Below, piece by piece: positions 7,225-60,775 of a DNA stretch of 64,000 nucleotides. The stretch comes from Kiritimatiellia bacterium. GTDB lineage: Bacteria > Verrucomicrobiota > Kiritimatiellia > RFP12 > UBA1067. Location of the stretch: contig JAQIBS010000167.1 in NCBI GenBank assembly GCA_027858965.1, positions 62,001 through 126,000 of the forward strand, written 5' to 3'. A model generated the notes under the pieces. That model worked only from the letters and a program-made list of their open reading frames with translations. It did not search any database and had not been told where the DNA came from. The position numbers and the translations under genes are program-made. The stretch's first letter is position 1. Each line of letters starts with the position of its first letter.

Positions 7225-9144
7225 ATGAGTAAAGTAATCAGCAGATTATTAAGTGTTGCATTAATTGTGGCATTAACTTTTGTTTTATCATCAGAAGTTC
7301 AGGCGGCAGAACTTTTCTATAAAATTCCAGTCGGTACAACTAGCAGCTGGTTTACCGTGGAAAATTGGAACACAGCGTACAATGGCACTGGCGACAATTA
7401 TCTTCCCGCACCTACTAATGATACAACTCTTAGTGGAGGTGTATGTGTTATTGATGGTGGATCAAACGCTGAGGTAACCAGAGTAAGTAATATGGCTCGT
7501 TGGATGGGTGGCACAGGATTTACATTGGATATTGAATCAGGAGCAACTTTATCTATCAGTAATTATCTTGTCCTTGGCAACGAATTTGTGGATGCGACAA
7601 TGAATGTCAGGGGACAGCTTAATGTAATAAATGCACCAAACAATGGTTTTTCACTTGGAGGTTACAGGGCTGGATTAACAAACAATATTGGCCTTCTTAA
7701 TATTGATGGTGGAACTGTGATATATGGAACTGGTGAGGGCACATCGCCAATTATTTTGGGCGGGGCATCAACTGGTCGTGTGGAAATCACCAATGGCGGG
7801 ATATTTATTAATAATAATTCATGTAATATTGGACCTGGTGCTGATTCTCAATCAGATGGCACTGTGATCATCCAGGATGGTTCATGGACTAATTTCGGTG
7901 GTATATCTGTAGGTAACAATGGTGGAACTGGCAGGATTATTGTAAATGGTGGCGGCGTATATTCTATGAGTATCGGAGGTCCTATGTCAGTTGGAAACGG
8001 CGGTGCAACTGGATATTTCGAAATAAATGGCGGAGAGTTTATTGGGCGGCATGGATACAATGATATAGCTTCCAGTGCAAATCGCTCTTTGATTACTGTG
8101 GGTTCAGGAACCGGGAGTACAGGTAAATTCATTCAGAATGGCGGTGTTGTTGAAGCTGTTGGACTGTCTTTAGGAAATGGTGGTTCAGCACATGCAATCA
8201 TCAGCAATGGCCTTTTCAAGGCAATGTCCAACAATGGTTCATGGCCATGTTTTTTTATATATGATGATGCTACATTGACTATTGCCGGTGGAGAATTCTC
8301 CTGCTATACGAATGGAGCAGCAAGCACTATCAGAGACGGCGGAACATTAGAATTTATCTCCGGTAAATTTACGGCTCGTTACGCCGGTGCAACACTGTAC
8401 ACCTATTCTAATACAACTATCAGAGTTATTGGTCCCAAATGTGATATTGATGTTGGCTGGTGGCGACACACTTCTCCATATGATGGCAAGGGAGCGGCAA
8501 GTTCTACTTTGGAACTTATTTTGACTCAGGATGCAGGTCATTTGAGTACATTTAAGTCTCCACGTACGGATCAAGATACGGCACTGGCAGGAACAATGGA
8601 TGTTGCGTTTGATGGGGGGGCATGTCTGTTAGCAACTAACAAGCTGATTTGTATGAGAGCCGGCAGGTATCTTTCAACAACTTTTGTAGATCCTTCTAAT
8701 TACGGATTAGAGCTTTGGGATACCGGCCGAACAGGAACATATGGTAATGATGAACTTTATATTACTCTCAAGGATGGTGCTTCTCTTGGAAGTGTTTCTA
8801 TACCGAATGCAAAGTATGCCAGTTTTGCACCGCAGGCTTACGGATATGTAGATGTTGAAAATCTTGATTTAGGCACACTACCTGAATTAACCGTTGAGAT
8901 GACAATGACCGCTGGCGATAAGACTCTTGATCAGGTTGTGACAGATCTTCAGAGAGCGGGATACACTAACTCGGTTATGAAAGATGCAGAGACCATTGTA
9001 ATGATAGTGCCAGCAGATAAGATTGTATCTACTACTGGATATTTCGCATGGGATTTCCGCGAATTTGATGGTTCGGTAAATGCAACAGTTAGCGCTGTTT
9101 CATTTCAGCCTGGTTTAAAAGGTACAATTTTATTGATTCAGTAG
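7225..9144 (+). CDS. Secreted beta-helix surface protein with GTILLIQ tail
   Basis: A 639-residue protein with a clear signal peptide (MSKVISRLLSV, hydrophobic core, cut near VQAAE at 26-30). Residues about 30-450 are a repetitive parallel beta-helix of the autotransporter-associated type, with recurring words such as NGGxF, GNGGxTG and GGEFxG. The last part is a separate beta domain ending FQPGLKGTILLIQ. The end GT-[IL]-[IL]-x-[VIL]-Q is shared with the two giant proteins at 18213 and 24674, which points to a common C-terminal fold. No catalytic motif is seen. AGGAG lies well placed before the ATG. A run of seven G at 8614-8620 lies inside the coding region. Its base composition is more AT-rich than the 18-29 kb cluster. 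Confidence 0.75.
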   Translation: MSKVISRLLSVALIVALTFVLSSEVQAAELFYKIPVGTTSSWFTVENWNTAYNGTGDNYLPAPTNDTTLSGGVCVIDGGSNAEVTRVSNMARWMGGTGFTLDIESGATLSISNYLVLGNEFVDATMNVRGQLNVINAPNNGFSLGGYRAGLTNNIGLLNIDGGTVIYGTGEGTSPIILGGASTGRVEITNGGIFINNNSCNIGPGADSQSDGTVIIQDGSWTNFGGISVGNNGGTGRIIVNGGGVYSMSIGGPMSVGNGGATGYFEINGGEFIGRHGYNDIASSANRSLITVGSGTGSTGKFIQNGGVVEAVGLSLGNGGSAHAIISNGLFKAMSNNGSWPCFFIYDDATLTIAGGEFSCYTNGAASTIRDGGTLEFISGKFTARYAGATLYTYSNTTIRVIGPKCDIDVGWWRHTSPYDGKGAASSTLELILTQDAGHLSTFKSPRTDQDTALAGTMDVAFDGGACLLATNKLICMRAGRYLSTTFVDPSNYGLELWDTGRTGTYGNDELYITLKDGASLGSVSIPNAKYASFAPQAYGYVDVENLDLGTLPELTVEMTMTAGDKTLDQVVTDLQRAGYTNSVMKDAETIVMIVPADKIVSTTGYFAWDFREFDGSVNATVSAVSFQPGLKGTILLIQ

Positions 9145-18212: not shown

Positions 18213-21200
18213 ATGAAAAAAAATAATGAATCCAACGTGTATAGGTGTAAATTGCGTGTTTTGACGGCAATCACTCTGATATCGTCCTTCACCGGGCTGC
18301 TGCCAGCAGAAGCCGGCGTACCGGTCGGGCAGTCAACGCTCATTGACACGCCGGATTACAGCGACACCTTTACCGTCAATACGGCCAGCCGGCCCGGGAT
18401 TTCCTACTACAAGAACCCGGATGCCATAGATCCCTACTACAACGTCGAAAGCGGAACACCCACCGTGCAGTGGCACCCGACCCAGAACTTCAGCTTCAAT
18501 ACCGATGCAAATGTCGAAGCGCCATATCCGGGCAATACCGGCAACACCGGTGCTGCCACCGGCATGGCCCAGACCGGCGGCTTCAACGCCAACTTCGCTT
18601 ACGGCGTGCGGGACACCTTTGTTGTCCAGATGGATGCAACTTTCGTGGGAACAGATCATATTAAGCTCGGCACCTACGCCAGCGTAGGCGATCAGAGCGG
18701 AGCGGCCGGCAGTCTGGTCGCCTATTTCCGACGCGGGACAATCGGTCTGGTCTCCATTGTCGAGACGTCAACCGGCATTAGCACCGGAATTGATGCTGCC
18801 GACACCTCCTGGCACAATCTTGCGGTCGAATTCAACAAAGCCGACAATACCGTCTCTTTCTTCGTTGATGAAGTGCTGAAAGGCACCCTTGACCTGACAA
18901 CCTTTGCGGGCGGAGCCTACCTCAACTACTCCAACGGCGCTGTCGGCGCGGGAGTAAGCGGATATGTGGGCTGGTTCGACAATTTCCAGGTCGGCAAGCC
19001 GAAGGGGTTTGTCGACGGCACTCTGATAAATGGTCACCGTACCGAGCAAACAAGCGTGAGCGGTAACGATTCGATCACAACACTGGTTGATGCCGGCCGG
19101 CTGATCAAGCAGGGCGCAGGTACCCTGAGCATCACCAATGCCCACATATATAATGGCACCATAGAGGTCGCGGATGGCACACTGGACATTGGAACCGGCA
19201 CAAGCGATCTTCCTTCAGCTCTGAGATCCGGCCTTGCTTTCTGGGTGGATGCCAACCGCAATGTCGAAGTCAACGGCGGTGAAGTGACCTGCTGGTATGA
19301 TGTGCGTGAAGATTCCGGCGGCGTGACCTATCCCATGGCGCGCCGGTTTGTGTCAACCAATGCGGTCGTCGACCCAGGCCCGACATGGGTGCAGGGCGGC
19401 GATGACGTATCCGGCCTCAAGCTCGTTGATTTCGGTGCCTATGGCAGCGGAAAGTGGCTGCAGTGGCAGGATGCGGAAAGCAACCGTCTGAGCATCGCGA
19501 ATATCCGCACGGTCTTCATGGTCGTCTCCTGCACCAACGGCTACGGCTTCCTGCTGGGAGACTGGGATGACGCCATCGCGAACACCAACGCCGGCACCGG
19601 CGACTTCCACACGGGCGGCAACACAGGAGACGGCAATCCGGCAGGTGTGGCGCTTAAGGGGGCCAGCTGGTGGAACGGAAGCGCCTCTCCCTATGTGTAC
19701 AGGGGGCAGACCTTCATTAATGGAGATTACGTGAATGGTGTGGGACAGACGGTATCCTCCATCGGCGAGCTGATGTCGTTGGCGGCGACCGGCAACACAC
19801 AGGCTTCGAACTTCGGCAACAACCGCAACTTCAAGGCGAGCGACGGTCTCCCGGGCGTCAATATCGACCGACAGGGCGGCGGACGGATCGGCGAGGTTTT
19901 GATCTACTCATCGGCGCTAACGATCAGCCAGCGACTCCAGATTGAGTCGTACCTGATGAAAAAATGGTTTGGCCAGGGTCTCGGCTCACTCCGTATAGAC
20001 GAAGGCGCGGTAGCGACACTGCATGCCGACGGCACAAACAACCTGTCAAACGCAACCATCTCCGGTATCGGCACACTGAATATGCAAGGATCCGGCACCC
20101 TGCAGGTCTCTGATATGGCCGATCCCCTCCTTCCGCCGGTACGCCTCAACGCAGGTGCGGGTATTGACAGCGGCACCCTGTACCAGCGGACAGACCAGCC
20201 CTATATGCTGGAAGGCGGTTCCCTCTACAGCGTCTCCAACGGTCTCTCCTCACGGCAGTCATTGGAGGACGGAACTCGCATTGAAAAAAGCGGTGACGGC
20301 GTGCTGACCGCCGCGTCAATCGAAGCCGGCGTCCAGCGAGTGGAGGTCAAAGCCGGCACCCTGCGTCTGGCCCCTCCGCTGCCCGGCACGGCTGCTTTAA
20401 CCAATGCTCTGGAAAACGCCAGTTTCGAAACCTTCACATCTGTGGGCACAGGCGGAGACGCCAACTGGGGCTACACCCCCACGGGCACAGGCTGGACCAT
20501 CACAGAAGACCTCTCCTCCGGCAACTCATTAGAATGGTCCGGAGCAGGACTGGCTAGATGCTCAGCAGGCACACCCTGGTGTGCAGCCCAAATCGCACCT
20601 GAAGGCGACTGGTGCATCTTCCTGAAACGTGCCGGGGAAATTAAACGCACTTTTGAAGTGCCGGTTTCCGGCCGCTATGAGATCTCTTTCTACACCTCCG
20701 CCCGACCAAACTGGAACAACCATCTCTACCAGGTTCTGGTCGACACGACCAATGTCATCGGAAGTGTACGAACCAAAAAAACAACGTTCGGACTTATTAC
20801 CTGCACCACGCCCCCACTTTCAGCCGGCACCCATACGCTCTGCTTCAAGGGAATTTATGGGACCAGCGACGGGGCATCAAATATTGATGCCATCGAAATC
20901 AAGCTGTTCAACGGAATGGATTATGTGAAAGTTCCTAACGCTGACTTCGAAGAACCGGATGTCCCTGTTGTAAATCTTGCAGGGAACGATTACTATTTTG
21001 CATACAACCCCTCCGGTGCGAGCTGGAATTTTATTCCCGCCCCGGCAGTCACCAACAGCGGCATCACAAGCGGCAACAATGTCTGGTACTACACCCAGAT
21101 GAAAAATGGCGGTCAAGCGGCATTTTTGCGCCAGACAGGAGGGATGTCCACCTCGATCACCTTCCCGACAACAGGGGTCTACCGGCTTTCGTTTCGAGCC

Positions 21201-22154
21201 GCCGCACGGGTTGGAGACTGGGGAGATCTTTTCAGCTGGTACAACGGTCATGACTTGGAGATCTCGCTTGGCGGCACGCTGACAGCCCGCATGACAACGT
21301 GGAAGCCGGATTTCGAAACGGTCTCATACGTCCTGCCGGTCATCGAAGAGGGGGATCCGCTGACGCAGACCCTGACCTTCACCGGTTTGAACTCCGCAGG
21401 GGGCGACCGGGCAACGCTCATCGACGAAGTCAGCATCTGTCGCATGCCTACCTTTGCCAACCCAGGTTTTGAAAGCTCCGCCACGCTGGCAAACGGGACC
21501 TGGGAGGCTGGCATCGAGAATGCGGGATGGTCGTTCGATCTCGGAGCGGGAGCAACGAGCCAAAGCGGCATTGCACAGACCGGTTCTGATTGGGGCAACA
21601 CCGCGCCGGACGGGGGATGCAATGCCTTCCTGCAGATGATCGCCCAAATCAGTCAGACAATCACATTTGATGAGGCCGGCACCTATGAAATCTCTTTTCT
21701 AGCCGCAGGCCGGCCTCAGAACCAAAATTATCTGAACCACGACTTCCAGGTAACCTTCGACGGCATGAAAGTGGGGTATGTCCGCACAGTGGACGGCACC
21801 TTTCGCCGGTACACGTTCCGTCTACCCTTCGTGAAAGCGAATGTTCCTTACGTTCTGGCCTTCGAGGGCATCAACCACGGCGACACCACGGACCGCGCCT
21901 CCTTTATTGACTCAGTTATACTCACAAAAATCGAGGAACCCACATTCGATCCCGCCGCCTTTGCCAAAACTGAAATCGCCCTCTCGGCTGGAACCACATT
22001 GGAGCTCGACTACGATGGTCTCCTCACAATGGAACGCATCATCTACAGCGGACGTTCATACTCCGGCATGATGACAGCCGAAAACACACCCTTTATTCAA
22101 GGCACCGGATCGCTCTATGCAACCCCTCAAGGAACTATAATCATTCTACAATAA
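18213..22154 (+). CDS. Giant secreted lectin-like surface protein with shared C-terminal module
   Basis: A 1313-residue protein with a signal peptide (hydrophobic near 12-30, cut near PAEA). Domains by eye: a concanavalin-A-like jelly roll (about 40-270), an autotransporter-associated beta-strand repeat (294-330, LIKQGAGTLSITNAHIYNG), and a second LamG-like domain (331-586). Short beta repeats follow, then three similar jelly rolls beginning NASFE, NADFE and NPGFE (about 730, 907 and 1078), and a 70-residue tail from PTFDPAAFAKTE to GTIIILQ. The last 407 residues align with the end of the rhamnosidase at 24674. No catalytic motif is seen, so binding or cell-surface display is more likely than catalysis. 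AGGA precedes the ATG. Higher GC than the genes around 7-13 kb. Divergent AraC regulator upstream. Confidence 0.8.
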   Translation: MKKNNESNVYRCKLRVLTAITLISSFTGLLPAEAGVPVGQSTLIDTPDYSDTFTVNTASRPGISYYKNPDAIDPYYNVESGTPTVQWHPTQNFSFNTDANVEAPYPGNTGNTGAATGMAQTGGFNANFAYGVRDTFVVQMDATFVGTDHIKLGTYASVGDQSGAAGSLVAYFRRGTIGLVSIVETSTGISTGIDAADTSWHNLAVEFNKADNTVSFFVDEVLKGTLDLTTFAGGAYLNYSNGAVGAGVSGYVGWFDNFQVGKPKGFVDGTLINGHRTEQTSVSGNDSITTLVDAGRLIKQGAGTLSITNAHIYNGTIEVADGTLDIGTGTSDLPSALRSGLAFWVDANRNVEVNGGEVTCWYDVREDSGGVTYPMARRFVSTNAVVDPGPTWVQGGDDVSGLKLVDFGAYGSGKWLQWQDAESNRLSIANIRTVFMVVSCTNGYGFLLGDWDDAIANTNAGTGDFHTGGNTGDGNPAGVALKGASWWNGSASPYVYRGQTFINGDYVNGVGQTVSSIGELMSLAATGNTQASNFGNNRNFKASDGLPGVNIDRQGGGRIGEVLIYSSALTISQRLQIESYLMKKWFGQGLGSLRIDEGAVATLHADGTNNLSNATISGIGTLNMQGSGTLQVSDMADPLLPPVRLNAGAGIDSGTLYQRTDQPYMLEGGSLYSVSNGLSSRQSLEDGTRIEKSGDGVLTAASIEAGVQRVEVKAGTLRLAPPLPGTAALTNALENASFETFTSVGTGGDANWGYTPTGTGWTITEDLSSGNSLEWSGAGLARCSAGTPWCAAQIAPEGDWCIFLKRAGEIKRTFEVPVSGRYEISFYTSARPNWNNHLYQVLVDTTNVIGSVRTKKTTFGLITCTTPPLSAGTHTLCFKGIYGTSDGASNIDAIEIKLFNGMDYVKVPNADFEEPDVPVVNLAGNDYYFAYNPSGASWNFIPAPAVTNSGITSGNNVWYYTQMKNGGQAAFLRQTGGMSTSITFPTTGVYRLSFRAAARVGDWGDLFSWYNGHDLEISLGGTLTARMTTWKPDFETVSYVLPVIEEGDPLTQTLTFTGLNSAGGDRATLIDEVSICRMPTFANPGFESSATLANGTWEAGIENAGWSFDLGAGATSQSGIAQTGSDWGNTAPDGGCNAFLQMIAQISQTITFDEAGTYEISFLAAGRPQNQNYLNHDFQVTFDGMKVGYVRTVDGTFRRYTFRLPFVKANVPYVLAFEGINHGDTTDRASFIDSVILTKIEEPTFDPAAFAKTEIALSAGTTLELDYDGLLTMERIIYSGRSYSGMMTAENTPFIQGTGSLYATPQGTIIILQ
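20932..22154 (+). repeat. Shared C-terminal module, copy 1 (coding)
   Basis: Codes for the last ~407 residues of the surface protein: two jelly rolls and a tail. Collinear with 27969-29185. Identical stretches include EGDPLTQTL, NPGFES, LANGTWEAGI and FDPAAFAKT. The similarity is at protein level, with DNA diverged. Confidence 0.85.
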
Positions 22155-22183
22155 AGTAACAACGTTAAAACTTACGTATGCCG

Positions 22184-22214
22184 CAAGCTGTCTGACTCTC
22201 AGTCAGAGAGCTTG
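22184..22214 (+). terminator. Likely intrinsic terminator after the surface protein gene
   Basis: CAAGCTGTCTGACT (22184-22197), loop CTC, AGTCAGAGAGCTTG (22201-22214): 13 of 14 positions pair, followed by TTTATTACT. The T-run is short, so partial read-through into the rhamnosidase genes is possible. Confidence 0.65.
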
Positions 22215-22285
22215 TTTATTACTCGATGACATATCTGATAACTGACCTATAACCCGATTAACTCTAAATACTTTCACGACTAATA

Positions 22286-24601
22286 ATGAAAACTTCGCTC
22301 CTCAGTTTATTTGCACTTCTGATCACTCTCCCATTTACAGCAATAGCTCAGACGGCTTTTCAAGGTGCGCAATGGTTACGCGATCCACGCTTTAAGAACG
22401 AACCGACACTGGGCATCTTCGACGTGCATCGCAAGAAGAGCCAAGAAGCCCGGCTTAAAAACATTCACACCTATTTTCGCAAATCATTCAATCTGCAGAC
22501 ACTCCCGCAACGGGCTGTCCTGCGATTTACGGCGGACGACTATGCAAAGCTGTATATCAACGGAACTTTTGTCATTCAGGGACCTGAACCCGCCTATCCT
22601 TTTGCTCATCCATACTATGATGTCGATGTAACAAAATATCTGTGCACCGGTGAAAACGTACTGGCGGCGCACACCTACTATCACGGTTTAGCAACACGAG
22701 CGTTCAACTCTGCTGACAACCGCAGCGGTTTGATTGCGCAACTAGTCTTAACCACAGAGGGCCTTCCTGAACAACGCATTGTAACTGACAAATCATGGCG
22801 CTGTTTCGCCTCCCGGACATTCTCTTCTGACAAGGTGTTTGGTTATGAAACGCAGTTTAATGAGAATATGGATCTTAATCTTGAACCGATCAACTGGCGA
22901 AAGCCAGGCTTTGCTGACACCACATGGAGCGCACCATTAACCGGCTTTCAGGATCACACTTTTATCGCTGCAATCACAGCCCCGCTGCAACACACAAACG
23001 CCTTTCCCATCGCTTTAAAGCAGACAGAGACAAATCGCTGGTTCGCAGATATGGGCACCGAAGTAGTTGGCCACACGCGCATTCGTGTCAAGGGATACCC
23101 CGGCCAGATCATCACAGTCTGGCACGGAGAAGAACTCTCAGCACCCAATGTTGTCCGTCATAAAATGCGCTGTAACTGCGATTATGTCGATCAGATCACT
23201 TTGACTGAAGGTAACAACCTGATCGAGTTTTTCGACTACCGCGCCTTTCGTTACGTCGAAATAATTGGAACAACCAATACGCCCGACATTCAGGTGGATG
23301 TCCGACACTATCCTTTTGAATGGACAGCCAGTAGCTGCCAATCGTCCGATACAGCTCTGAACAGGATCTGGGAAATATCCAAACGCGGAGTACAGATGGG
23401 CAGTCAGGGCATATTCGTCGACTGCCCCTCACGGGAGAAGGGGCAATATACCGGCGACACCTACATGACAGTTCTCTCACAGCTCCTTCTGACTGGTGAT
23501 CCGTCTCTAACCCGCAAGGCACTTATTGATTTCCAACAGACCCAACGGTTTGATCCCGGCATGTTATGTGTGGCACCCGGCGGATTCTGGCAGGAGTTGG
23601 CGGAGTGGTCTTTGCTGTGGCCGCAGATGGTTGTTTATTACTATCGAGTGACAGGAGACAAAGCCCTCGTTAAAACCTTAGTTGAAGCGGGTGCGACTGA
23701 AAAACTGATGAGGTATTTCTCAAAACTGGAACGTGAAGACGGCCTGTTGAGTGGAGTGGACCGGCACAAGTGGGTTCTGGTCGATTGGCCCTCCAACCTG
23801 CGGGGCGGCTACGACTACGACAAAACTAAAAACGGTGTGAATACTGTGATCAACGCCTTCTATTATGGATCTTTGCTAGCCGTTGCAGAGATGATGCGTA
23901 TTGCTGACCGTCCTGATCTGGAATACACCAACAAAGCCGAACGACTCGAAAAAGCCTTTAACAAATCTTTGCTGGACCCAGCCAGCGGCTTGTATATTGA
24001 CGGCATCCATGAAGATGATACCCGTTCATCGAAAACAAGCCTCCATGCAAACGGGTTTCCGCTCTATTTCGGATTGGTGCCCGAAACAAATCAAACAGCG
24101 GTTGTCAACTTGATCCGGCAGCAACGTCTCAACTGCGGAATCTACGGTGGACCTTATTTTATTGCCGCCCTGTTTAAGAACGGCCACTCCGACCTCGCCT
24201 ACGATCTGCTGACCAGCAAAGATACCCACTCATGGAACCAGATGCTCAAAGAGGGAGCAACGACCACATTCGAAGCATGGGGCGCAGATCAGAAGTGGAA
24301 TACAAGCCTCTGTCACCCGGCAGCAGGAATGCCGGTCTGGATTATCATCGAACATCTGATGGGACTGACACCTGCTGAACCGGGTTTCAAAACAGTGCGG
24401 GTTGCGCCGCGTATCCCCGCTGCCCTCACCTCCATTGAAGTCAGATTTCCGACCGTGTCCGGCACCATCTCGGCCCTCTATAAAAAGGACAAAGGCTATT
24501 TTTTATCCGTTCCTGAAAACACCCCTGTCATCGACGATACCCCACAGCACATTAAGTTAAAACTCGTTAATACCCTCCCGCCTGAAGAAAGTGTAAAATA
24601 G
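22286..24601 (+). CDS. Secreted alpha-L-rhamnosidase (GH78), compact form
   Basis: A 771-residue exported enzyme (signal peptide 1-21, ending AIAQ). The N-terminal part has the beta-sandwich sugar-binding domains of GH78 (LRFTADDYAKLYINGTFV near 80-97). The (alpha/alpha)6 barrel follows, with the signature VDCPSREKGQYTGD near 377-390, the variant seen in one GH78 branch, and GATTTFEAWG near 655. It would release terminal L-rhamnose from plant or algal polysaccharides or glycosides in the periplasm or outside the cell. It lies between the surface protein and the larger rhamnosidase on the same strand, 72 bp before the latter. It lacks the C-terminal module of its two neighbours. Confidence 0.88.
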   Translation: MKTSLLSLFALLITLPFTAIAQTAFQGAQWLRDPRFKNEPTLGIFDVHRKKSQEARLKNIHTYFRKSFNLQTLPQRAVLRFTADDYAKLYINGTFVIQGPEPAYPFAHPYYDVDVTKYLCTGENVLAAHTYYHGLATRAFNSADNRSGLIAQLVLTTEGLPEQRIVTDKSWRCFASRTFSSDKVFGYETQFNENMDLNLEPINWRKPGFADTTWSAPLTGFQDHTFIAAITAPLQHTNAFPIALKQTETNRWFADMGTEVVGHTRIRVKGYPGQIITVWHGEELSAPNVVRHKMRCNCDYVDQITLTEGNNLIEFFDYRAFRYVEIIGTTNTPDIQVDVRHYPFEWTASSCQSSDTALNRIWEISKRGVQMGSQGIFVDCPSREKGQYTGDTYMTVLSQLLLTGDPSLTRKALIDFQQTQRFDPGMLCVAPGGFWQELAEWSLLWPQMVVYYYRVTGDKALVKTLVEAGATEKLMRYFSKLEREDGLLSGVDRHKWVLVDWPSNLRGGYDYDKTKNGVNTVINAFYYGSLLAVAEMMRIADRPDLEYTNKAERLEKAFNKSLLDPASGLYIDGIHEDDTRSSKTSLHANGFPLYFGLVPETNQTAVVNLIRQQRLNCGIYGGPYFIAALFKNGHSDLAYDLLTSKDTHSWNQMLKEGATTTFEAWGADQKWNTSLCHPAAGMPVWIIIEHLMGLTPAEPGFKTVRVAPRIPAALTSIEVRFPTVSGTISALYKKDKGYFLSVPENTPVIDDTPQHIKLKLVNTLPPEESVK

Positions 24602-24673
24602 ACAACCTCATTTAATTCTTTACCCACCTTATCGAATCCGAATTCAGAATTTTATTCAAACCGAAAGGCATTC

Positions 24674-27600
24674 ATGATCTCATTCAAATCATCCTATTCC
24701 CTGCTTCTCCTATTTTTTATGCTCATTTCAATCGCTAATGGCCTGAGTGTTGATAATCTGCGTTGCGAGTATCTTGAAAATCCCATCGGTATTGATATTG
24801 CATCACCCCGTCTCTCATGGATACTGCAGTCGAACGAACGCGGACAGAGGCAGACCGCCTATCAGGTGATCGTGTCCAGCACACCGGAGTTACTGGCTAC
24901 GGAACAGGGCGATCTGTGGGACAGCGGCAAAGTTGTCTCTGATCGGACTCTTCATATTGTCTATGCCGGTTCTGCTCTGACAGCCCGGCAGCAGTGTCAC
25001 TGGAAAGTCCGCACATGGGACAAAAACAACCAGCCCTCGCCCTGGAGTCCCCCAGCGAGATGGAGTATGGGTCTGCTGCAGCTCTCCGACTGGGGTGGCG
25101 CAGACTGGATCGCCTTCACCTCCCCTACGGCAACATCCAACGCCCACAACGGCTATCACTGCATCATGACAAACACCGCCGATGTTTCCAAATGGGTAGC
25201 CGTTGATCTGGGTACCGCACAGTCAGTCGAGGCTGTACGCCTCCACCCCACCCGTCCTTACGACTGGCCAACGGATACCCCCGGATTTCTCTTCCCCGTC
25301 CGCTTCAAAATTGAAACTGCGCTGAATGCCGATTTCTCTGATGCCGTCACCGTGGTTGACCAGACAGCCGCCGATGTACCCAATCCCGGTACCAACGCAC
25401 CACTCTATGCCTTTACAGCACGCTCAGCCCGGTACATACGTCTGAACGTCACCAGATTGGCTCTGCGCGATCCCGGCAACTACGCCTTCACCCTGGCCGA
25501 ACTGCAAACCCTCTCGGGTGGCACCAATGTGGCGCAGGGTGCCGCGGTCTCAGCACTCGACAGCATCGAATTGGGTGGCTGGTCAAAAACAAAACTGACC
25601 GACGGACGCCTGCTGCCCGACCCAGGGACGCCTGTTGCGAGCCCACCGGCCACCATGCTGCGTAAGGAGTTTACACTGAGCAGTCCCGCAAAACGTGCGG
25701 TCGTATCAGTCACAGGACTCGGCCTTTACGAGCTGTGGATCAACGGGCAGCGGGTCGGCGACCACCTGCTGGCTCCCGAGTGGACCTGCTACAAAAAACG
25801 GATTCAGTACCAGACATATGATGTCACATCACTCCTGCAGGAGGGTGCTAATGTTATCGGGGCCCAACTCTGCGGTGGCTGGTGGTCCGGTCCCCTTATG
25901 ACCATGCCCGCGGTAACAGCACCTCAATACTGCCTGTTGCTTCGGATGGACACTGAACTGAACGATGACACAACGCAAACCCTTGTAAGTGATGGTTCGT
26001 GGCAGGCGACCGATGCAGGTCCGATCCGCCGTTCGGAGATCTATTACGGTGAAATCTATGATGCCACCAAAGAGCAACCGGGATGGAACCAGACCGGATT
26101 TGACGCCACTGGCTGGATTCCGACCGTTACCCTGACAGCCCCAGCAGGATCAGAAAACACACCGCTCGTGGCACAGCCAAGTGAACCCATCCGTGTCACA
26201 GAGGAGCTGACACCTGTAAACATCACTCAACCCACACCCGGCACCTATGTCTTTGATATGGGACAGAACATGGTCGGCTGGTGCCGGTTGCATACGGATG
26301 CCCCCGCCGGTACGCAGATCTCCATGCGCTTCGGCGAGGCACTGAACGAGGATGGCACCGTCTATCTGGCCAACCTCCGAGGAGCAACCCAAGTCAATAC
26401 CTACACCTGGCGGGGCGGAGAGGCCACACTCGAACCGCATTTTACCTATTTCGGCTTCCGTTACGTTCAGGTCACGGGACTGACCACACCGCCGAACACT
26501 GGCACCCTGCTCGGCCGGGTCTTTCACTCCAGCGCTCCGGAAACAGGAACCTTCTCCAGCTCCAATGAACTGCTCAATTCCATCATGCGCTGCGTCGACT
26601 GGGTTCAACGTGCTAATATGCACAGCGCCCCCACCGACTGTCCTCAGCGGGATGAACGACTAGGCTGGATGGGGGATATTCTCTCTTTCTCACAGACCGC
26701 CATCTTCAACCGGAACATGGCCGGATTCTTCACCAAGTGGATTCCTGATATTCGCGATTCGCAGGCCGATGACGGACGTTATCCGGATTTTGCACCGCAT
26801 CTCGGCGATCCCAATGGTAATTTCAACAGTGTCCCCGGATGGGGCGATGCCGGCACTGTTGTGCCATGGCGCATGTATCAGAACTATGCTGATACCCGCA
26901 TTCTGGAACAGCACTTCGATTCAGCTAAACGATGGGTAGATTTCATCCATAACGCCAACCCCAACCTCCTCTGGCAGAACAGCCGCGGCAATGACTATAA
27001 CGACTGGCTCAACGGCGATACGCTTATTCTTGACGGTTACCCACGCGGCATCAGTGAAATTCCAAAGGAGATATTCGCCACCGCCTTCTTTGCTCGCTCA
27101 ACCGAGATCGTGGCAAAAATGGCCAAGACTCTGGGACGCACCGAGGATGCCGCCACCTATACTACTCTTCACAACTCAATCAAAGCCGCATTCAACGCCG
27201 CTTACGTCACACCGGAAGGCCGCATCAACGGCGAAACACAGGCTGGCTATGCGCTGGCGCTGAACTTCAATCTGCTTGACCCCAATCTGCGGCCTCAAGC
27301 CGCAAGTCACCTGCTGGAGTCCATTGCCGCCTACAAGTCCCATCCCTCAACCGGCATCCACGCAACCCACCGCATGCTGTTGGAGCTCTCTGCCAACGGA
27401 CAGCACGAAGAGGCCTGCCGCCTCGTCAATCTCCGTACCGTCCCCTCCTGGGGTTATATGATTGATATGGGGGCGACAACCATCTGGGAACGATGGGACG
27501 GCTATGTTGAAGGACGCGGCTTTCAGAACCCCGGCATGAACTCGATGAACCACTGGGCCTTCGGTTCAGTCGGCGAATGGGTCTGGCGGACACTGGTCGG

Positions 27601-29185
27601 CATCAATCCCGATGAGTCGCAGCCGGGTTTCAAACACATCATCTTTCATCCGCGTCCCGGCGGTGGCCTCACCTGGGCCAAAGGCCGCTACGAATCCATC
27701 CGCGGACCGATCGTCAGCGAGTGGGCCATCCAGGCCAACACCCTCTCGATGCACATCGAAATCCCGCCCAATACATCTGCAACCGTTTTTATTCCCACCG
27801 CGAATGCCGCTGCCATTACCGAAGGCGGCACATCGGCTGCCCAAACTAGCGGACTGACATTCCTGCGTATGGAGGAGGAGTGCGCTGTTTATGAGGCTGA
27901 ACCGGGCAGCTACTCCTTTGAAGGGCCCGCCCCGGCAACCAGCGCAGCGGACCGTACCGAGGTTCATGTATCCAATCCGGGCTTTGAAATACCGACCGAA
28001 CTGGCGACCTCAACAAACGACTCCTACTATGAGTACAATCCGTCCGGAGCAGGCTGGACCTTTATTGATAATCCGGCGGTCACCAACAGCGGAATCACGG
28101 AAGGTAACGGGGTCTGGTACTACACCCACATGGCTGAAGGGAACCATGCCGCCTTCCTGCGCCAGACAGGTCAGGTGTCAACACCGGTCACCTTTCCGGC
28201 GGCAGGTGTCTACCGTCTGACCTTTCAGAGTGCCGCACGCGTAGCCGACTGGGGGATTTCATTCCAATGGTACAACGGCCATGATTTCGATATCCAGCTC
28301 AACGGCAGGCAGGTTGCCCGTCTGCAGACATGGGATGCCAAATTTGCAAAACGTTCGTTTGTTCTGCCAGTCATTAAGGAGGGAGATCCGCTGACCCAGA
28401 CGCTGAGCTTCACGGGAGTGAACTCACAGGGCGATGACAGGACCTCACTCATCGATGATATCGGCATCACCCGGATGCCGACTTTCGGCAATCCCGGTTT
28501 CGAAAGCGATGCAACCCTGGCAAACGGCACATGGGAGGCGGGTATCACAAATGCTGGCTGGGAATTTTGTGCAGGTGAAAATCAAACCTCCCAAAGCGGC
28601 ATTGCCCTAGCGGATTCCGACTGGGGCAATACCGTTCCGGAAGGACTCTCCTGCGCCTTTCTGCAGATGACAGCCACCATCCGACAGACGATCACCTTCG
28701 AGACCGGCGGAACCTACGCGCTTTCATTTCTCACCGCTGCCCGCAGTCAACAGAGCCGATACATGAACCACGATTTCAATGTACTCTTCAACGGTATGGT
28801 CGTGGGATATGTCCGCACTGCCGAAGCCGCATACCGGCGTTACTCCTTCAGACTGCCGCTGGTCAAAGCGGGAGTCCCTTATGTCCTCTCCTTTGAAGGC
28901 ATCAACCAGGGTGATGCCACTGACCGCGCCTCGTTTCTCGACTCAGTCATGATTGTCAAAACAGATGATCCCGCTTTCGACCCTGCCGCCTTTGCTAAAA
29001 CATCTCTGAATCTGTCGCCCGGAACCATGCTGGAACTGGACTACGACGGTCTGCTCAGGATGGACCAAATCGCTTATGACGGGCACTCATTGACCGGTCT
29101 GCTGAACGCGGACAACACACCTTTCATTCAAGGATCCGGTTACATCTATGCCGCTGTCGTAGGGACTTTGATCAACGTTCAGTAA
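24674..29185 (+). CDS. Giant alpha-L-rhamnosidase (GH78) with F5/8-type and shared C-terminal modules
   Basis: A 1503-residue exported enzyme (signal peptide 1-23). After the N-terminal fibronectin-like domain (SVDNLRCEYLENPIGID, about 24-120), an F5/8 type C-like sugar-binding domain is inserted (about 150-290, with KWVAVDLGTAQSVEAVRLH and ARYIRLNVTRL). The GH78 N-terminal domain and barrel follow, with the signature APTDCPQRDERLGWMGD near 650-668 and WERWDGY near 938. From about 1099 to the end come two jelly rolls and a tail ending GTLINVQ, collinear with the C-terminus of the surface protein at 18213. Typical GH78 enzymes end near residue 1090, so the last 405 residues are an added module, perhaps for attachment or secretion. 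AAAGG precedes the ATG. Confidence 0.9.
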   Translation: MISFKSSYSLLLLFFMLISIANGLSVDNLRCEYLENPIGIDIASPRLSWILQSNERGQRQTAYQVIVSSTPELLATEQGDLWDSGKVVSDRTLHIVYAGSALTARQQCHWKVRTWDKNNQPSPWSPPARWSMGLLQLSDWGGADWIAFTSPTATSNAHNGYHCIMTNTADVSKWVAVDLGTAQSVEAVRLHPTRPYDWPTDTPGFLFPVRFKIETALNADFSDAVTVVDQTAADVPNPGTNAPLYAFTARSARYIRLNVTRLALRDPGNYAFTLAELQTLSGGTNVAQGAAVSALDSIELGGWSKTKLTDGRLLPDPGTPVASPPATMLRKEFTLSSPAKRAVVSVTGLGLYELWINGQRVGDHLLAPEWTCYKKRIQYQTYDVTSLLQEGANVIGAQLCGGWWSGPLMTMPAVTAPQYCLLLRMDTELNDDTTQTLVSDGSWQATDAGPIRRSEIYYGEIYDATKEQPGWNQTGFDATGWIPTVTLTAPAGSENTPLVAQPSEPIRVTEELTPVNITQPTPGTYVFDMGQNMVGWCRLHTDAPAGTQISMRFGEALNEDGTVYLANLRGATQVNTYTWRGGEATLEPHFTYFGFRYVQVTGLTTPPNTGTLLGRVFHSSAPETGTFSSSNELLNSIMRCVDWVQRANMHSAPTDCPQRDERLGWMGDILSFSQTAIFNRNMAGFFTKWIPDIRDSQADDGRYPDFAPHLGDPNGNFNSVPGWGDAGTVVPWRMYQNYADTRILEQHFDSAKRWVDFIHNANPNLLWQNSRGNDYNDWLNGDTLILDGYPRGISEIPKEIFATAFFARSTEIVAKMAKTLGRTEDAATYTTLHNSIKAAFNAAYVTPEGRINGETQAGYALALNFNLLDPNLRPQAASHLLESIAAYKSHPSTGIHATHRMLLELSANGQHEEACRLVNLRTVPSWGYMIDMGATTIWERWDGYVEGRGFQNPGMNSMNHWAFGSVGEWVWRTLVGINPDESQPGFKHIIFHPRPGGGLTWAKGRYESIRGPIVSEWAIQANTLSMHIEIPPNTSATVFIPTANAAAITEGGTSAAQTSGLTFLRMEEECAVYEAEPGSYSFEGPAPATSAADRTEVHVSNPGFEIPTELATSTNDSYYEYNPSGAGWTFIDNPAVTNSGITEGNGVWYYTHMAEGNHAAFLRQTGQVSTPVTFPAAGVYRLTFQSAARVADWGISFQWYNGHDFDIQLNGRQVARLQTWDAKFAKRSFVLPVIKEGDPLTQTLSFTGVNSQGDDRTSLIDDIGITRMPTFGNPGFESDATLANGTWEAGITNAGWEFCAGENQTSQSGIALADSDWGNTVPEGLSCAFLQMTATIRQTITFETGGTYALSFLTAARSQQSRYMNHDFNVLFNGMVVGYVRTAEAAYRRYSFRLPLVKAGVPYVLSFEGINQGDATDRASFLDSVMIVKTDDPAFDPAAFAKTSLNLSPGTMLELDYDGLLRMDQIAYDGHSLTGLLNADNTPFIQGSGYIYAAVVGTLINVQ
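27969..29185 (+). repeat. Shared C-terminal module, copy 2 (coding)
   Basis: Codes for the last ~405 residues of the giant rhamnosidase; partner of 20932-22154. The order NPGFE jelly roll, NPGFES jelly roll, FDPAAFAKT tail is the same. Confidence 0.85.
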
Positions 29186-53102: not shown

Positions 53103-56100
53103 TTACTCAGACAGAATCATCAACGGCCACAAATGCGGTTTGTAATCGCAGTGAGATCCGGGCTCGGTTGCCAGCGATAAACCCTTTACGCCGGGCGGAA
53201 CGGTGGCATCATCACGATCATGCAGAAACAATCCGAACCCGGCGTTGACTCCCTTCCTTAAAACGATTGGTTCAATATAGCGTTGGCCAAAGGTGATTGT
53301 ATAAACATAACCTTTTCCGGTCCGTTCAAAATCACACTTGATCTTTTCAGCGGCTTCCTGCTTTGAGGCCATATTAACACCATCGGCAAGCTGATGATAC
53401 ACTTCACGCAACCGGTAAACCATTCCGGCTCCGGACCTTCCGAATCGACCTATTGAAAAATCGTAGCGATAGTCATTGTTGTCATAAGTTTTCGCATCAT
53501 TCACTCTGCCATCAGCACCGGTATCAAAATAAACCTCCAGACATCCATCATGCATATAAAGCACCTGACCTGCATTTCCCTTTTTCCAGAGTTCAGGAAA
53601 AACCAGAAATTGATTATCCTCCACTTCGACACGTAAATAAAGATTATCTTTATCCCAGGCCATCTTAAAGCTTGCTTCAAGATCACCGGGCGCACCAACT
53701 TTAATATTCATCTTTTTTCGTCCGCAATCAGCACTCTTCCCCATGTATGTTCCCCCAAAACGGTTTAACAGAGGTATGGACGGGATCTTTTCCCACTCGG
53801 GCACTCCCTTGACTTCGGGCACATAAAAATAATCCATGTTCCACTCAACATTAAACGGATCACTTGTGGCTGGTTCAATCTGGAGAATTTCATTCCAGCG
53901 ATACATTACTCCAAAATCATTTCCTGCACTCTCCGAGACAATCAGATTTTGAGCAGCATCGGGTTTAAGAGCGTAAGTCAATGATTCGCCTGCCACCGAG
54001 ATTGTACCGCTCTGCTCACCTCCAGTCAGGTTTTTCACAGAGGCGATCAGATGCCCATCCAATTCAGCCTGCACCGCAATCTGCACGGGAGCGTAACTGT
54101 CATTAGCCTGCGCACTCTGAAACGTTTCACTTAACTGCACAATATCATTCGCTTTCATCAGAAGCGGTGCCGGCGTCAGCTGAATTTTCGTGACTCCTTT
54201 GCGAGGTGCTCCGGCAAAGCGCTGATGGCCCATCAAATCAATAAACTCAACCGGCTGCCGTAATTTAACATCCAGCACAGGCCCCCTTTTGAGTCCATTT
54301 TCCACATCATGGTTCACGCACCAGATGGCCGCAATGCCTGATCCATCCTTCAGTTTAAATGCATAGCCACGCACTCCGGCCATTGGTTTAATATCGGCTA
54401 CATACTCGACATCACCCAAATGAGTGCCAAGGGTGTTAACCGCTTTGCAGAGTATTATGGGAGTAATATTTTGATCCATATACGGACTCGAAACCCAGAT
54501 ATTGGATGATTGAACATGCGGCCAATATTTAAGCATAATGATAAAAGCGCGGGCCGCTGAGCAAGCATGAATAAATTCACGATTACCAAAATCATAACTG
54601 ACTTTACCCGATTGATAAGCGTCGTATGACGTATCAGCACCCCATGCAGGGATATAGGTTTCTGGCTTATTGAACATCTCCGAGTAGTGAATTGGTGTTT
54701 CTTCGCCATATCCGTAACGCTTCATTTGTGCGATTAAACGGGAGGACTCTTCATCCAGATCATTCCTCCCCAACGTCCCCTTATCAATATTGCCATAAGG
54801 ATGTACAGCGATGGCATCATATTTAAAGTTGTGTTTACGGGCCGTCTTAAGGTATCCCTCAATAGCATCATAGCCACGCAGAAGAGAGTACCCGGAAGTT
54901 CCATGAGTCGGTAATATACAAGCCTTGGAATTGGCTCTTTTAACTCCTTTTGCAGTTGCATACTGCGCTTTAAAGTACTCATCAAATTTTTGATCACGGA
55001 TAAGAGCGGAACCCTCCTCTTCATTACCAAAAGCCCATCCGGTGTAAAGTTCCGGATACCATTGACCCGCTTTAAAGGCAACTTCTTCAATGTGCTTCTC
55101 CATCTCAGGTGTAATGGACGTCCACTCTCTCGACTTGCGCAAATCAGGATCCTGGCCAGCCACCGAATTGACCGTATTGGCAATACCATATTTAATTTCC
55201 ATCTCCGGTTTAACCGTTTCCCGATCCACCTGGCAACCCCAGCTCGTTGATCCGAAACCCCATGCCACCATCTTTTGCGCCAGCTCTTCGCCTCGGGAAA
55301 TGCGGGCATACCCTCCCAGCGTTCCGAATATTTTCCGGGTGGCATGGCTATTGGTCAGCGGAGTCATGATAAACAGACGGTAGTAATCGGAGTAAGGTTC
55401 AAATCCAGGAACTTCACACTCGGTCCTGAAAACAAATATTCCTTCGCCGAATTTCACCGCATCCAGAGGCAGGGGAATTTTCTGAGTGCCGTCAGCCCCT
55501 AATGTCACCGCAAAGCTCTCTGCATACACAACCTCCCGGTAGGCATTTTTAGCCGTGATACACACAGTCCCTTTTGTCCCGGGCACACCGGTGAAGGTAA
55601 AGGCGGCATTGATCGGCACTCCTTTGACAATCGAATTATCCTTATCGGAGGTAGATAACATTCCATCCAGAGGCACGCACACAAACGGAGATGGCTGACT
55701 ACCCTCCTCAATCTGAATCCCATCAATCAGGGTATCATTACCACCGGATACAACCAGCGACAAACCGCCTGCATCCATCGTAAAGGTGCGGGAGTAACGC
55801 TCCCATTCTGTTGTGATCTTAAACTTACAATCCGGGTTGTCATTATCGCCGAACAGAGTTCCATATTTACCTCTGAATTTTCCGCCACTGGCCGCACTCG
55901 CCAATGCGATACTCAGATGGCTCTCCTGAGGCGCTTTGGCATAAAAAGAGAGAGTATAGACTTTGCCTTTATCCAGCGACATCGGAAAACTCCGCATCGA
56001 AGGCGCGCCCTGCTGGGTATTGCGCAGGATCAGGGCATTTTTTCCGAACTTACCCTGAGGCACAATATCATAACGGGGCAGAGGATCAGGTGTATATCGG

Positions 56101-57125
56101 GCACCGCCACCACACCAGCGCCAATAGCGCAATCCCTGCTCAAAGCTGGGGTTCGGCATCAGGTTGCCTATGCTCGGGAGAGGCACATGAAGCCCATCTG
56201 TTTTCCAGAAATCAATGCCGCCCACCGACGGCGGCGCATTGTGCTGCGGCAGCTCCGCCTCACCCAGATCAATAACGACCCGGCCTGAGACCCGCCGTCC
56301 GGGGTAACTTGTGCGATAAAGCAAGTTGTACCGCTCTTTACCGGCCACCTTCGGAACATAGATGCTCTCGGTAAATCCACCCGTCAGATCACCCATATCA
56401 AGGGTATAGCCCTTTAACGGGTCTAAGGTGTTGTATGCAATATTTCCAGAGCCGGATGTATGCACCCCTTTAGAGTCAATCAGCTCTTCACGGGTGGCCT
56501 CTTTAAAAGCCTTGTCACCGCAGACCAGCTTCTTTCCTTTATGCAGCATGGGGGCAAACCACAACTGCGCCGAAAAATTGACAGTGGAACTATCCAGTTC
56601 TTTTTGAGGCACCCCCAGATTCCAGAGCAGCTCCACCTTGCTCTGCTTCAATGATTTCAGGGTATAACTAAAAACTGCACGTTTGCCAGCCGGGGTCAGA
56701 TAGGGCTTATGATAACTTACGATATGAGTTGCCTCATCAATTTTCAGAGTTGCGGGATCACCATCGATCTCCTTAAAGGGATAACCAAATCCGCCATCTT
56801 TAAACGACCCCCACCACATGAACCTCCCCACTTGTTTATTATCGATATAAATCGCAACTGACTGATCCTGGTCCGGTCGATTGACTCCCCCGACCCGGCG
56901 CACCTCAACCGATTTGTTTCCGACGATAAAAGCAGGCTGTTCATAAAGACTCTCCTTCCATGTGAAGCTGTTAACCAGCAATACAGGATCCTGACGGGCA
57001 GCCCCCTGACTTTCCAGAAACGGTTCAGGATTTGGCAACAACGCATATGGAGGCAGCTCTTTAACATCACACCCACAGAACAGCAAACATAACGGCACTA
57101 AAATAAGTAAATTTTTCTTTTGCAC
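53103..57125 (-). CDS. Multidomain lipoprotein, glycosidase candidate of clan GH-A type
   Basis: A 1340-residue protein with a lipoprotein signal (LVPLCLLFCGC, Cys19). An N-terminal beta region (about 50-300) precedes a CBM4/9-like jelly roll opening MPNPSFEQGLRYWRW near 320. Residues about 600-930 look like a TIM barrel: YTGWAFGNEEEG near 695-706 gives an Asn-Glu acid/base pair and IHYSEMFNKPETYIP near 811-825 a candidate nucleophile. Immunoglobulin-like strands and a CBM9-like domain (AWDKDNLYLRVEVEDNQF near 1205-1222) end the protein. It would sit on the outer membrane facing outward or the periplasm and cut a polysaccharide. No named GH family is recognised with certainty. The frameshifted gene at 52028 follows it. 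Confidence 0.75.
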   Translation of the reverse strand: MQKKNLLILVPLCLLFCGCDVKELPPYALLPNPEPFLESQGAARQDPVLLVNSFTWKESLYEQPAFIVGNKSVEVRRVGGVNRPDQDQSVAIYIDNKQVGRFMWWGSFKDGGFGYPFKEIDGDPATLKIDEATHIVSYHKPYLTPAGKRAVFSYTLKSLKQSKVELLWNLGVPQKELDSSTVNFSAQLWFAPMLHKGKKLVCGDKAFKEATREELIDSKGVHTSGSGNIAYNTLDPLKGYTLDMGDLTGGFTESIYVPKVAGKERYNLLYRTSYPGRRVSGRVVIDLGEAELPQHNAPPSVGGIDFWKTDGLHVPLPSIGNLMPNPSFEQGLRYWRWCGGGARYTPDPLPRYDIVPQGKFGKNALILRNTQQGAPSMRSFPMSLDKGKVYTLSFYAKAPQESHLSIALASAASGGKFRGKYGTLFGDNDNPDCKFKITTEWERYSRTFTMDAGGLSLVVSGGNDTLIDGIQIEEGSQPSPFVCVPLDGMLSTSDKDNSIVKGVPINAAFTFTGVPGTKGTVCITAKNAYREVVYAESFAVTLGADGTQKIPLPLDAVKFGEGIFVFRTECEVPGFEPYSDYYRLFIMTPLTNSHATRKIFGTLGGYARISRGEELAQKMVAWGFGSTSWGCQVDRETVKPEMEIKYGIANTVNSVAGQDPDLRKSREWTSITPEMEKHIEEVAFKAGQWYPELYTGWAFGNEEEGSALIRDQKFDEYFKAQYATAKGVKRANSKACILPTHGTSGYSLLRGYDAIEGYLKTARKHNFKYDAIAVHPYGNIDKGTLGRNDLDEESSRLIAQMKRYGYGEETPIHYSEMFNKPETYIPAWGADTSYDAYQSGKVSYDFGNREFIHACSAARAFIIMLKYWPHVQSSNIWVSSPYMDQNITPIILCKAVNTLGTHLGDVEYVADIKPMAGVRGYAFKLKDGSGIAAIWCVNHDVENGLKRGPVLDVKLRQPVEFIDLMGHQRFAGAPRKGVTKIQLTPAPLLMKANDIVQLSETFQSAQANDSYAPVQIAVQAELDGHLIASVKNLTGGEQSGTISVAGESLTYALKPDAAQNLIVSESAGNDFGVMYRWNEILQIEPATSDPFNVEWNMDYFYVPEVKGVPEWEKIPSIPLLNRFGGTYMGKSADCGRKKMNIKVGAPGDLEASFKMAWDKDNLYLRVEVEDNQFLVFPELWKKGNAGQVLYMHDGCLEVYFDTGADGRVNDAKTYDNNDYRYDFSIGRFGRSGAGMVYRLREVYHQLADGVNMASKQEAAEKIKCDFERTGKGYVYTITFGQRYIEPIVLRKGVNAGFGLFLHDRDDATVPPGVKGLSLATEPGSHCDYKPHLWPLMILSE

Positions 57126-57439
57126 TCAATCTCCTGATTTATGATTCAACCTTACTTCATTTTACTCCCATACCCTCTTTTAGTCCACCTCTACTTAGCC
57201 ATAACATTGACCTCATAACTTATGCGGAATAAAAACTCTTGGTTACAGAATATAAAAATAACCAACACATCCCGCACCTGTTATGGAGGGTCCCAGGCCC
57301 TGAAACCGGCGGACGGTGAGCCACCGTCCCTCCAGGTTTGCCATGAAAAAAGCAGTTGAAATATAAGTTACTCACTTTACACAAAAAAACTCAGCTGAAA
57401 ATTCCAGCTGAGTTTTTTTTCTTATGCAGTTTAACTGCA
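57126..57439. other. Intergenic region with hairpin repeat
   Basis: 314 bp. GGAGGGTCCCAGGCCC then GGACGGTG-AGC-CACCGTCC (57311-57329, perfect 8-bp arms) and CCCTCCAGGTTT belong to the repeat also seen at 45142. A terminator is at 57383-57419. No gene is seen. Confidence 0.65.
57383..57419. terminator. Bidirectional intrinsic terminator
   Basis: AAAAAAACTCAGCTG (57383-57397), loop AAAATTC, CAGCTGAGTTTTTTT (57405-57419): perfect 15-bp arms with A- and T-runs. On the minus strand it terminates the SMP-30-like gene that ends at 57440. Confidence 0.92.
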
Positions 57440-58513: not shown

Positions 58514-58587
58514 TTTAATTTTCCTGTTAATTGCTTATTGCTCAACTTCTGTCATAAAAAAACAAGAAATTGAAAAATCAGCTATGT

Positions 58588-58666
58588 GCTTGTAGCGGGT
58601 AGTCTGTAGCTGGTAGCAAAAATTACAGAGCAACCTACAAGCTACGAGCCACAAGCTACAAGCTAG
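58588..58666. repeat. TAGCTGGTAG-type intergenic repeat
   Basis: TGCTTGTAGCGGGTAGTCTG and TAGCTGGTAGC, then the inverted words CTACAAGCTACGAGCC and ACAAGCTACAAGCTAG. Same family as 17057 and 35010; the halves can pair. Confidence 0.7.
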
Positions 58667-58740
58667 ATTGCGGGTAGATCCCGCTTTGGTTTTTTTTTGA
58701 TAAGGCCAGTTAATTTTTATGGCACGAAACACTCTTCGCA

Positions 58741-60657: not shown

Positions 60658-60691
60658 ACGTTACCCATCCTCCCCAGTACAAAACCGAGGT

Positions 60692-60720
60692 TCAATATCC
60701 AATATTCAATATTCAAATCC
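60692..60720. repeat. AATATTCAATATT word repeat
   Basis: AATATCCAATATTCAATATTC with variants (TTCAAATCCAAAATTC), a low-complexity word repeat of 9-11 bp periodicity in the gap between the TPR and vWA genes. Confidence 0.7.
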
Positions 60721-60775
60721 AAAATTCCCATTCGGTTCAGAAAACCGATTTTAAAATAATTTCCATGGCACATTG

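What the first reader, a model, noticed from the sequence alone, without database searches (positions are those of the whole stretch)
18213..29185. A ~405-residue C-terminal module shared by a surface protein and a rhamnosidase
The last 407 residues of the 1313-residue protein and the last 405 of the giant GH78 are collinear: two jelly rolls (NPGFE...) and a FDPAAFAKT tail ending GT[IL]I-x-[VL]Q. The compact GH78 between them lacks it. A third secreted protein (7225-9144) keeps only the tail ending GTILLIQ. The module could be a new surface-attachment or secretion signal, or a paired sugar-binding unit that brings enzyme and surface protein to the same polymer.
Basis: partly seen in the sequence, partly recalled or inferred. 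Interest (0 to 1): 0.7.

Follow-up and report, generated by a model that had tools for sequence, protein, structure and literature searches.

The report
New C-terminal sorting tag, GT-CTERM
The shared protein tail in the window ends in a seven-residue C-terminal tag (Gly-Thr, four greasy residues, then Arg or Gln) that about 140 otherwise unrelated secreted proteins of this bacterium carry at their very last residues, so it is probably an undescribed address label for exporting proteins to, or holding them on, the cell surface.

Summary
Residues 905-1313 of the surface protein and 1097-1503 of the large GH78 are 63.6% identical, and the compact GH78 lacks the region. The module has three separable layers.

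(1) Jelly rolls: DUF642/CBM-type sugar-binding sandwiches, three in the surface protein and two in the GH78.

(2) A ~55-residue beta "cap". It also occurs outside the class, where PEP-CTERM or another C-terminus follows it.

(3) The last seven residues, G-T-h-I-h-h-[RQ]-stop. These are all that the third protein shares.

A genome scan finds layer 3 at 144 stop codons against 5 for the reversed control. The proteins fall into about 37 families unrelated upstream of it, most with signal peptides, many lectin-like or autotransporter-repeat-like. Scores are high in several families of the same GTDB class and at chance in the rest of the phylum. Genomes rich in it have few PEP-CTERM proteins.

It resembles the terminal strand of type IX type B signals (G at -7, R at -1), but SprA and PorP/SprF are absent while positive controls ring. 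Best reading: an undescribed C-terminal sorting or anchoring signal with an unknown receptor, and the jelly rolls as sugar-binding cargo. Function is inferred; nothing was tested in the laboratory.

The parts
18213..22154 (+). 1313-aa secreted protein (PATR/autotransporter-type repeat ~297-326, three CBM-like jelly rolls, cap, GT-CTERM)
   Evidence: 34% identical to jelly roll 3 in the alignment; CBM_35 E 5e-4
20925..21452 (+). jelly roll 2 (residues 905-1080)
21453..21947 (+). jelly roll 3 (residues ~1081-1245)
   Evidence: DUF642 PF04862 E 6.5e-8; AF2 pLDDT 80-90 over most of the unit; CBM4-2 Z 13.8
21969..22124 (+). ~52-aa beta cap (residues 1253-1304)
   Evidence: alignments A2/A4; no Pfam or NCBIfam family
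22131..22151 (+). GT-CTERM heptapeptide GTIIILQ, followed directly by the stop codon
22286..24601 (+). compact GH78 alpha-L-rhamnosidase without jelly rolls, cap or GT-CTERM (internal negative)
24674..29185 (+). 1503-aa GH78 alpha-L-rhamnosidase with two jelly rolls, cap and GT-CTERM
27962..28489 (+). jelly roll 1 of the GH78 (residues 1097-1272)
   Evidence: DUF642 E 8.5e-8
28490..28978 (+). jelly roll 2 of the GH78 (residues ~1273-1435)
29000..29155 (+). beta cap of the GH78 (residues 1443-1494)
29162..29182 (+). GT-CTERM variant GTLINVQ, followed directly by the stop codon
7225..9144 (+). 639-aa secreted beta-rich protein with GT-CTERM only (no jelly roll, no cap detected)
9121..9141 (+). 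GT-CTERM heptapeptide GTILLIQ, followed directly by the stop codon

Best explanation
The functional core of the shared tail is its last seven residues, here called GT-CTERM: G-T-[LVI]-I-[LIM]-[VIL]-[RQ, less often YHNK]-COOH, often with a proline two or three residues before the G. It most likely acts as a C-terminal sorting signal. [quoted passage not shown] The free, hydrophobic, extended C-terminus is then bound, probably by adding itself as a beta-strand, by an envelope receptor or translocon not yet identified, which moves the protein to the cell surface or holds it there. The CBM-like jelly rolls in front of it are cargo that binds sugar polymers. The 55-residue cap closes the preceding beta structure and gives the terminal strand a short linker. 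In the window this would put the surface protein and the large rhamnosidase on the same surface with the same ligand, while the compact rhamnosidase stays periplasmic or soluble. Shown here: position, sequence, number, unrelatedness of the carriers, enrichment of signal peptides, class restriction, separability from cap and jelly rolls. Inferred: that it sorts proteins, the receptor, the final location.
For: 144 stop-adjacent matches in the 5.93-Mb genome against 5 for the reversed control pattern. At positions the pattern leaves open among hydrophobics, -4 is I in 77 of 94, and the last residue is R36 Q25 Y9 H8 N8 K7 W1 and never acidic. One internal copy in 65,518 residues of the same proteins. 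The 89 testable proteins fall into 37 single-linkage families by the 140 residues before the motif, so it is not one domain inherited with its C-terminus. 63 of 78 motif ORFs have a crude signal peptide, against 57 of 157 other ORFs. Cargo is surface-type: PATR 24 of 73, Laminin_G_3 16 of 73, T5SS/PEP-CTERM-associated repeats and choice-of-anchor domains. In class genomes the cap ends in GT-CTERM or a variant in most cases, while outside the class the same cap precedes PEP-CTERM, precedes another domain, or is internal. Counts are high in several families of the class and at control level in the rest of the phylum. In 14 genomes, GT-rich ones hold 0-8 PEP-CTERM proteins and GT-free ones 7-34 (Mann-Whitney p 0.005).
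Against: No localisation or secretion experiment, and no receptor found. The signal-peptide rule is a home-made one. The -7 G and -6 T are fixed by the search pattern in the set of 94. The largest linkage group (31 of 89) may share ancestry upstream. The PEP-CTERM contrast rests on 14 genomes that are not phylogenetically independent. Some class genomes show variants without the G, so the recognised feature is wider than GT.
Confidence: 0.68

Rival explanations
1. Purely structural: GTLIIIR is the closing strand of beta-helix, lectin and cap folds and has no sorting role.
For: Most carriers are beta-rich. The cap ends in a strand that runs into the motif.
Against: 37 families unrelated upstream share the same seven residues at the same distance (zero) from the stop. 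The same cap outside the class ends differently. The same repeat and LamG proteins occur widely without it, since counts elsewhere in the phylum are at chance.
Confidence: 0.15
2. A cryptic type IX-like system: GT-CTERM is recognised as the last strand of type B C-terminal domains is, by a diverged PorP/PorV-like barrel.
For: Type B C-termini of Bacteroidota have G at -7 in 20/20, R at -1 in 18/20, and hydrophobics at -5, -3 and -2. The strict DNA pattern, run over 84,980 species, hit one T9SS type B protein ending EKGTLMIIR. Type B proteins are Sec-exported, carry conserved C-terminal beta-strand motifs needed for secretion (PMC12618676) and are held by PorP-like barrels (PMC9143113).
Against: SprA and PorP/SprF are absent from 10 class genomes while both Bacteroidota controls ring. 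There is no Bac_Flav_CTERM domain in the four GT-rich genomes tested. Residue -4 is T/A/S in type B but I here, and no CHU_C-type domain precedes the heptapeptide.
Confidence: 0.2
3. GT-CTERM is a reduced PEP-CTERM handled by the exosortase that these genomes encode.
For: Exosortase homologues occur in all 14 genomes tested, two in G000. Cargo overlaps with T5SS/PEP-CTERM-associated repeats. There is a proline-rich stretch before G.
Against: No transmembrane helix: four or five hydrophobic residues only. Exosortase is equally present in GT-free genomes, which use ordinary PEP-CTERM. G000 itself has seven PEP-CTERM proteins.
Confidence: 0.08
4. The terminal strand acts as a beta-signal for the BAM/TAM insertion machinery, or is a docking peptide for a PDZ-type periplasmic factor.
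For: The C-terminal hydrophobic strand with a glycine six residues upstream resembles known beta-signals (established knowledge, not tested).
Against: The hydrophobics are consecutive rather than alternating, there is no terminal aromatic, and none of the 73 carriers has a Pfam barrel domain.
Confidence: 0.12

Closest known systems
PEP-CTERM / exosortase sorting signal (TIGR02595; Haft 2006, PMC1569441)
   Same: Many unrelated Sec-exported proteins per genome share only a short C-terminal signal; beta-rich surface cargo; found by genome statistics first.
   Different: No PEP motif, no transmembrane helix, no basic cluster; seven residues; exosortase is present with and without it.
T9SS type B C-terminal domain (TIGR04131 / PF13585 CHU_C)
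   Same: Ends in G-x-h-x-h-h-R-COOH in the same register; Sec-exported adhesins; held on the surface.
   Different: There it is the last strand of an ~85-aa conserved domain with SprA and PorP/SprF. Here no such domain and neither protein was found.
DUF642 (PF04862) and CBM4/16/22/35/36/61 galactose-binding-like modules
   Same: Fold and weak sequence match of the jelly rolls.
   Different: Ligand unknown; 1-3 copies stand in front of a C-terminal signal.
choice-of-anchor domains (TIGR04362 and relatives)
   Same: Domains found in front of interchangeable C-terminal anchors.
   Different: The matches are below the curated cut-offs where those are shown, and the anchor here is not a listed one.

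Membership tests
PEP-CTERM | PEP motif, transmembrane helix and basic cluster at the C-terminus | tested here: not met
   The last 24 residues show only P enrichment at -10/-9 and four or five hydrophobics; no NCBIfam hit on the tails.
PEP-CTERM | co-occurrence with exosortase | tested here: inconclusive
   Exosortase is present in all 14 genomes, GT-rich and GT-free.
T9SS type B substrate | Bac_Flav_CTERM / CHU_C domain | tested here: not met
   No match in G000, G230, G110, G192; 13-30 matches in four Bacteroidota.
T9SS type B substrate | SprA translocon and PorP/SprF shuttle in the genome | tested here: not met
   SprA 0 of 10 class genomes with two positive controls. PorP: one sub-cut-off match, in a GT-free genome, with two positive controls.
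T9SS type B substrate | terminal G(-7)...R(-1) strand | tested here: met
   G 20/20 and R 18/20 in type B. Here G by pattern, R 36 and K 7 of 94.
Autotransporter (T5SS) | C-terminal beta-barrel | tested here: not met
   PATR repeats in 24 of 73 carriers, but no barrel family among the 24 Pfam families found.
DUF642 / CBM-like jelly roll | family profile above cut-off and galactose-binding-like fold | tested here: met
   33.0 and 32.6 bits against cut-off 27; CBM4-2 Z 13.8, rmsd 2.6, 142 aligned.
DUF642 / CBM-like jelly roll | carbohydrate binding | not testable with these tools
   Needs a binding assay.
Type I secretion C-terminal signals | no N-terminal Sec signal peptide | tested here: not met
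   63 of 78 carriers have a crude signal peptide.

The most novel reading that the evidence does not exclude
One class of Verrucomicrobiota (probably Kiritimatiellae) has an undescribed outer-membrane export or anchoring machine that reads only a seven-residue C-terminal strand, G-T-h-I-h-h-[R/Q], on over a hundred unrelated surface proteins, in place of PEP-CTERM and convergent with the last strand of type IX type B signals.
Probability: 0.45. Interest if true: 0.9.

Novelty: new variant of a known kind. Interest (0 to 1): 0.77.

Why it matters
How PVC bacteria put hundreds of large adhesins and polysaccharide-degrading proteins on their surface is largely open. A C-terminal address label this short, with over a hundred carriers in one genome, would let one predict the surface proteome directly from sequence. 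It would point to a machine that can be found by phylogenetic profiling, and it would offer a minimal tag for surface display. The shared register with type IX type B signals raises the question whether two unrelated systems recognise the same kind of C-terminal strand.

Tried and rejected
Whole 405-aa block as one signal: rejected, because cap and jelly rolls occur internally and the third window protein has neither. Named relatives by the module: the search for related loci in genome contigs found none. Solved structures by sequence: none. AF2 of the whole 408-aa module with two sequences: pLDDT 49, not used. AF2 with five jelly-roll units: jelly roll good, cap and tail below 50, so no claim is made on the cap fold. 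First SprA search without a ringing control was set aside and repeated with Bacteroidota controls. Looser pattern T-h-h-x-h-R over the class: clear excess only in G000, G110, G084, G101 and a slight one in G107; elsewhere the background is too high to separate. Prepilin-like neighbours: 1 of 215 ORFs, no link. Literature: no description of such a motif found in three Pontiella papers or in searches for Kiritimatiellae with sorting terms; subscription papers were not searchable.

Full report
Check of the observation. The 1313-aa protein (18213-22154) and the 1503-aa GH78 (24674-29185) share residues 905-1313 and 1097-1503 at 63.6% identity, E 1e-169. The compact GH78 between them lacks the region. 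The 1313-aa protein also has a third jelly roll at ~730-904. The third protein, 7225-9144, shows no significant tail similarity by BLAST; only its last seven residues, GTILLIQ, match.

Layer 1, jelly rolls. They match DUF642 above Pfam's cut-off in both proteins. A model of one jelly roll, built from the five window copies, has pLDDT 80-90 over most of the unit. It aligns with CBM4-2 (Z 13.8, rmsd 2.6, 142 residues), gingipain cleaved-adhesin domains and several other CBMs. They are sugar-binding-type sandwiches; the ligand is unknown. In the genome, one to three copies stand before the cap in about a dozen proteins, and one copy is internal in a 2168-aa protein.

Layer 2, cap. About 55 residues, not in Pfam or NCBIfam. 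It occurs on more than 15 proteins of the genome and usually ends at the C-terminus. Outside the class the same cap is followed by a PEP-CTERM (L226), by a different ~120-150-aa domain (L223, L224, L240, L245), or is internal (L220, L235). In class genomes it is followed by 10-15 residues ending in the GT motif or a variant in most cases. Cap and terminal motif are therefore separable.

Layer 3, GT-CTERM. Proteins with unrelated pre-terminal sequence ended the same way, so I scanned the genome for G-T-h-h-h-h-polar-stop. There were 144 matches against 5 for the reversed pattern. I read 97 of the matching frames. The logo over 94 is G94 T94 [L42 V28 I19 M5] [I77 L14 V3] [L39 I27 M17 V8 F3] [V40 I24 L23 F5 M2] [R36 Q25 Y9 H8 N8 K7 W1], with P enriched at -10 and -9. 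G, T and hydrophobicity are fixed by the pattern; the isoleucine at -4 and the non-acidic last residue are not. Internally the motif occurs once in 65,518 residues, and 89 proteins form 37 single-linkage families by the 140 residues before it. A crude rule finds signal peptides in 63 of 78 carriers against 57 of 157 other ORFs. Carriers are PATR and autotransporter-repeat proteins, LamG lectin-like proteins, T5SS/PEP-CTERM-associated repeats and choice-of-anchor domains, without an autotransporter barrel.

Distribution. Across 288 genomes of the phylum, the motif exceeds its control strongly in the own family (36/0, 29/1, 17/2, 14/1), in part of the order (23/1) and in several other families of the class (31/1, 28/6). 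It is at chance in the rest of the phylum and in a small-genome family of the same order. A strict DNA version run over 84,980 species gave only 18 stretches. The plausible secreted long reading frames were in a Kiritimatiellae genome (L249), UBA1200 of Verrucomicrobia (L262), a PVC-group contig (L261, short) and one Chitinophagaceae (L255, a T9SS type B protein); the remaining hits were mostly tiny frames. The class of the window is therefore inferred, not shown, to be Kiritimatiellae.

Relation to known systems. Exosortase is present in all 14 genomes tested. PEP-CTERM counts are 0-8 in seven GT-rich genomes and 7-34 in seven GT-free ones (Spearman -0.67, Mann-Whitney p 0.005; genomes not independent). 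Type B type IX signals end in the same register, G at -7 in 20/20 and R at -1 in 18/20, but with T/A/S at -4. SprA and PorP/SprF are not found in ten class genomes while Bacteroidota controls ring. Published work shows that type B signals carry conserved terminal strand motifs needed for secretion (PMC12618676) and are held on the surface by PorP-like barrels (PMC9143113). That gives a precedent for recognition of a C-terminal strand, not membership.

Mechanism proposed. Sec export; binding of the exposed C-terminal strand by an unknown envelope receptor; surface delivery or retention. The jelly rolls bind glycans and the cap is a structural closure. Sorting, receptor and location are inferred. 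Main rival: a structural closing strand. Second rival: a diverged type IX-like system.

Limits. No localisation data; home-made signal-peptide rule; 100 of 144 places could be listed; genome in 256 contigs; the cap fold is unresolved; the motif's true width is broader than GT (variants ATVIMVR, GVLIIVR, GLIFILR, GMIILIQ; TVLTVR in a related family).

Noticed in passing
G000:C91:53586-54374 and G000:C221:8570-9331: Two exosortase homologues in a genome with only about seven PEP-CTERM proteins; every class genome tested has at least one.
   Followed up: partly
L223, L224, L236, L240, L245: In other Verrucomicrobiota the same cap is followed by a ~120-150-aa C-terminal domain with a DxDxDGxxN stretch, several ending in F[VFA]RL-type strands; possibly another unnamed C-terminal domain.
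   Followed up: no
L052:2521-9189 (G000 C241): A 2223-aa protein joining FAD-dependent oxidoreductase domains, a PATR repeat, one jelly roll, the cap and a GT-like end GLIFILR.
   Followed up: no
L306:5223-8330 and L306:1787-4711: Neighbouring paralogues, 61% identical over their first 266 residues, one with GT-CTERM and one without: a natural pair for a localisation test.
   Followed up: no
L312:2431-5742 and L311:11139-11513: Variant ends ATVIMVR and GTMILIF show the signal tolerates changes at -7 and -1.
   Followed up: no
G110 (same class): Here position -3 is often Q, W, T or Y (T-h-I-x-[IV]-R), closer to the type B pattern than in the window's genome.
   Followed up: no
window 53103-63139 (-): Cluster of a 1340-aa CBM4_9/CBM9 putative lipoprotein, a VWA protein and a 775-aa TPR protein, none with GT-CTERM.
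   Followed up: no
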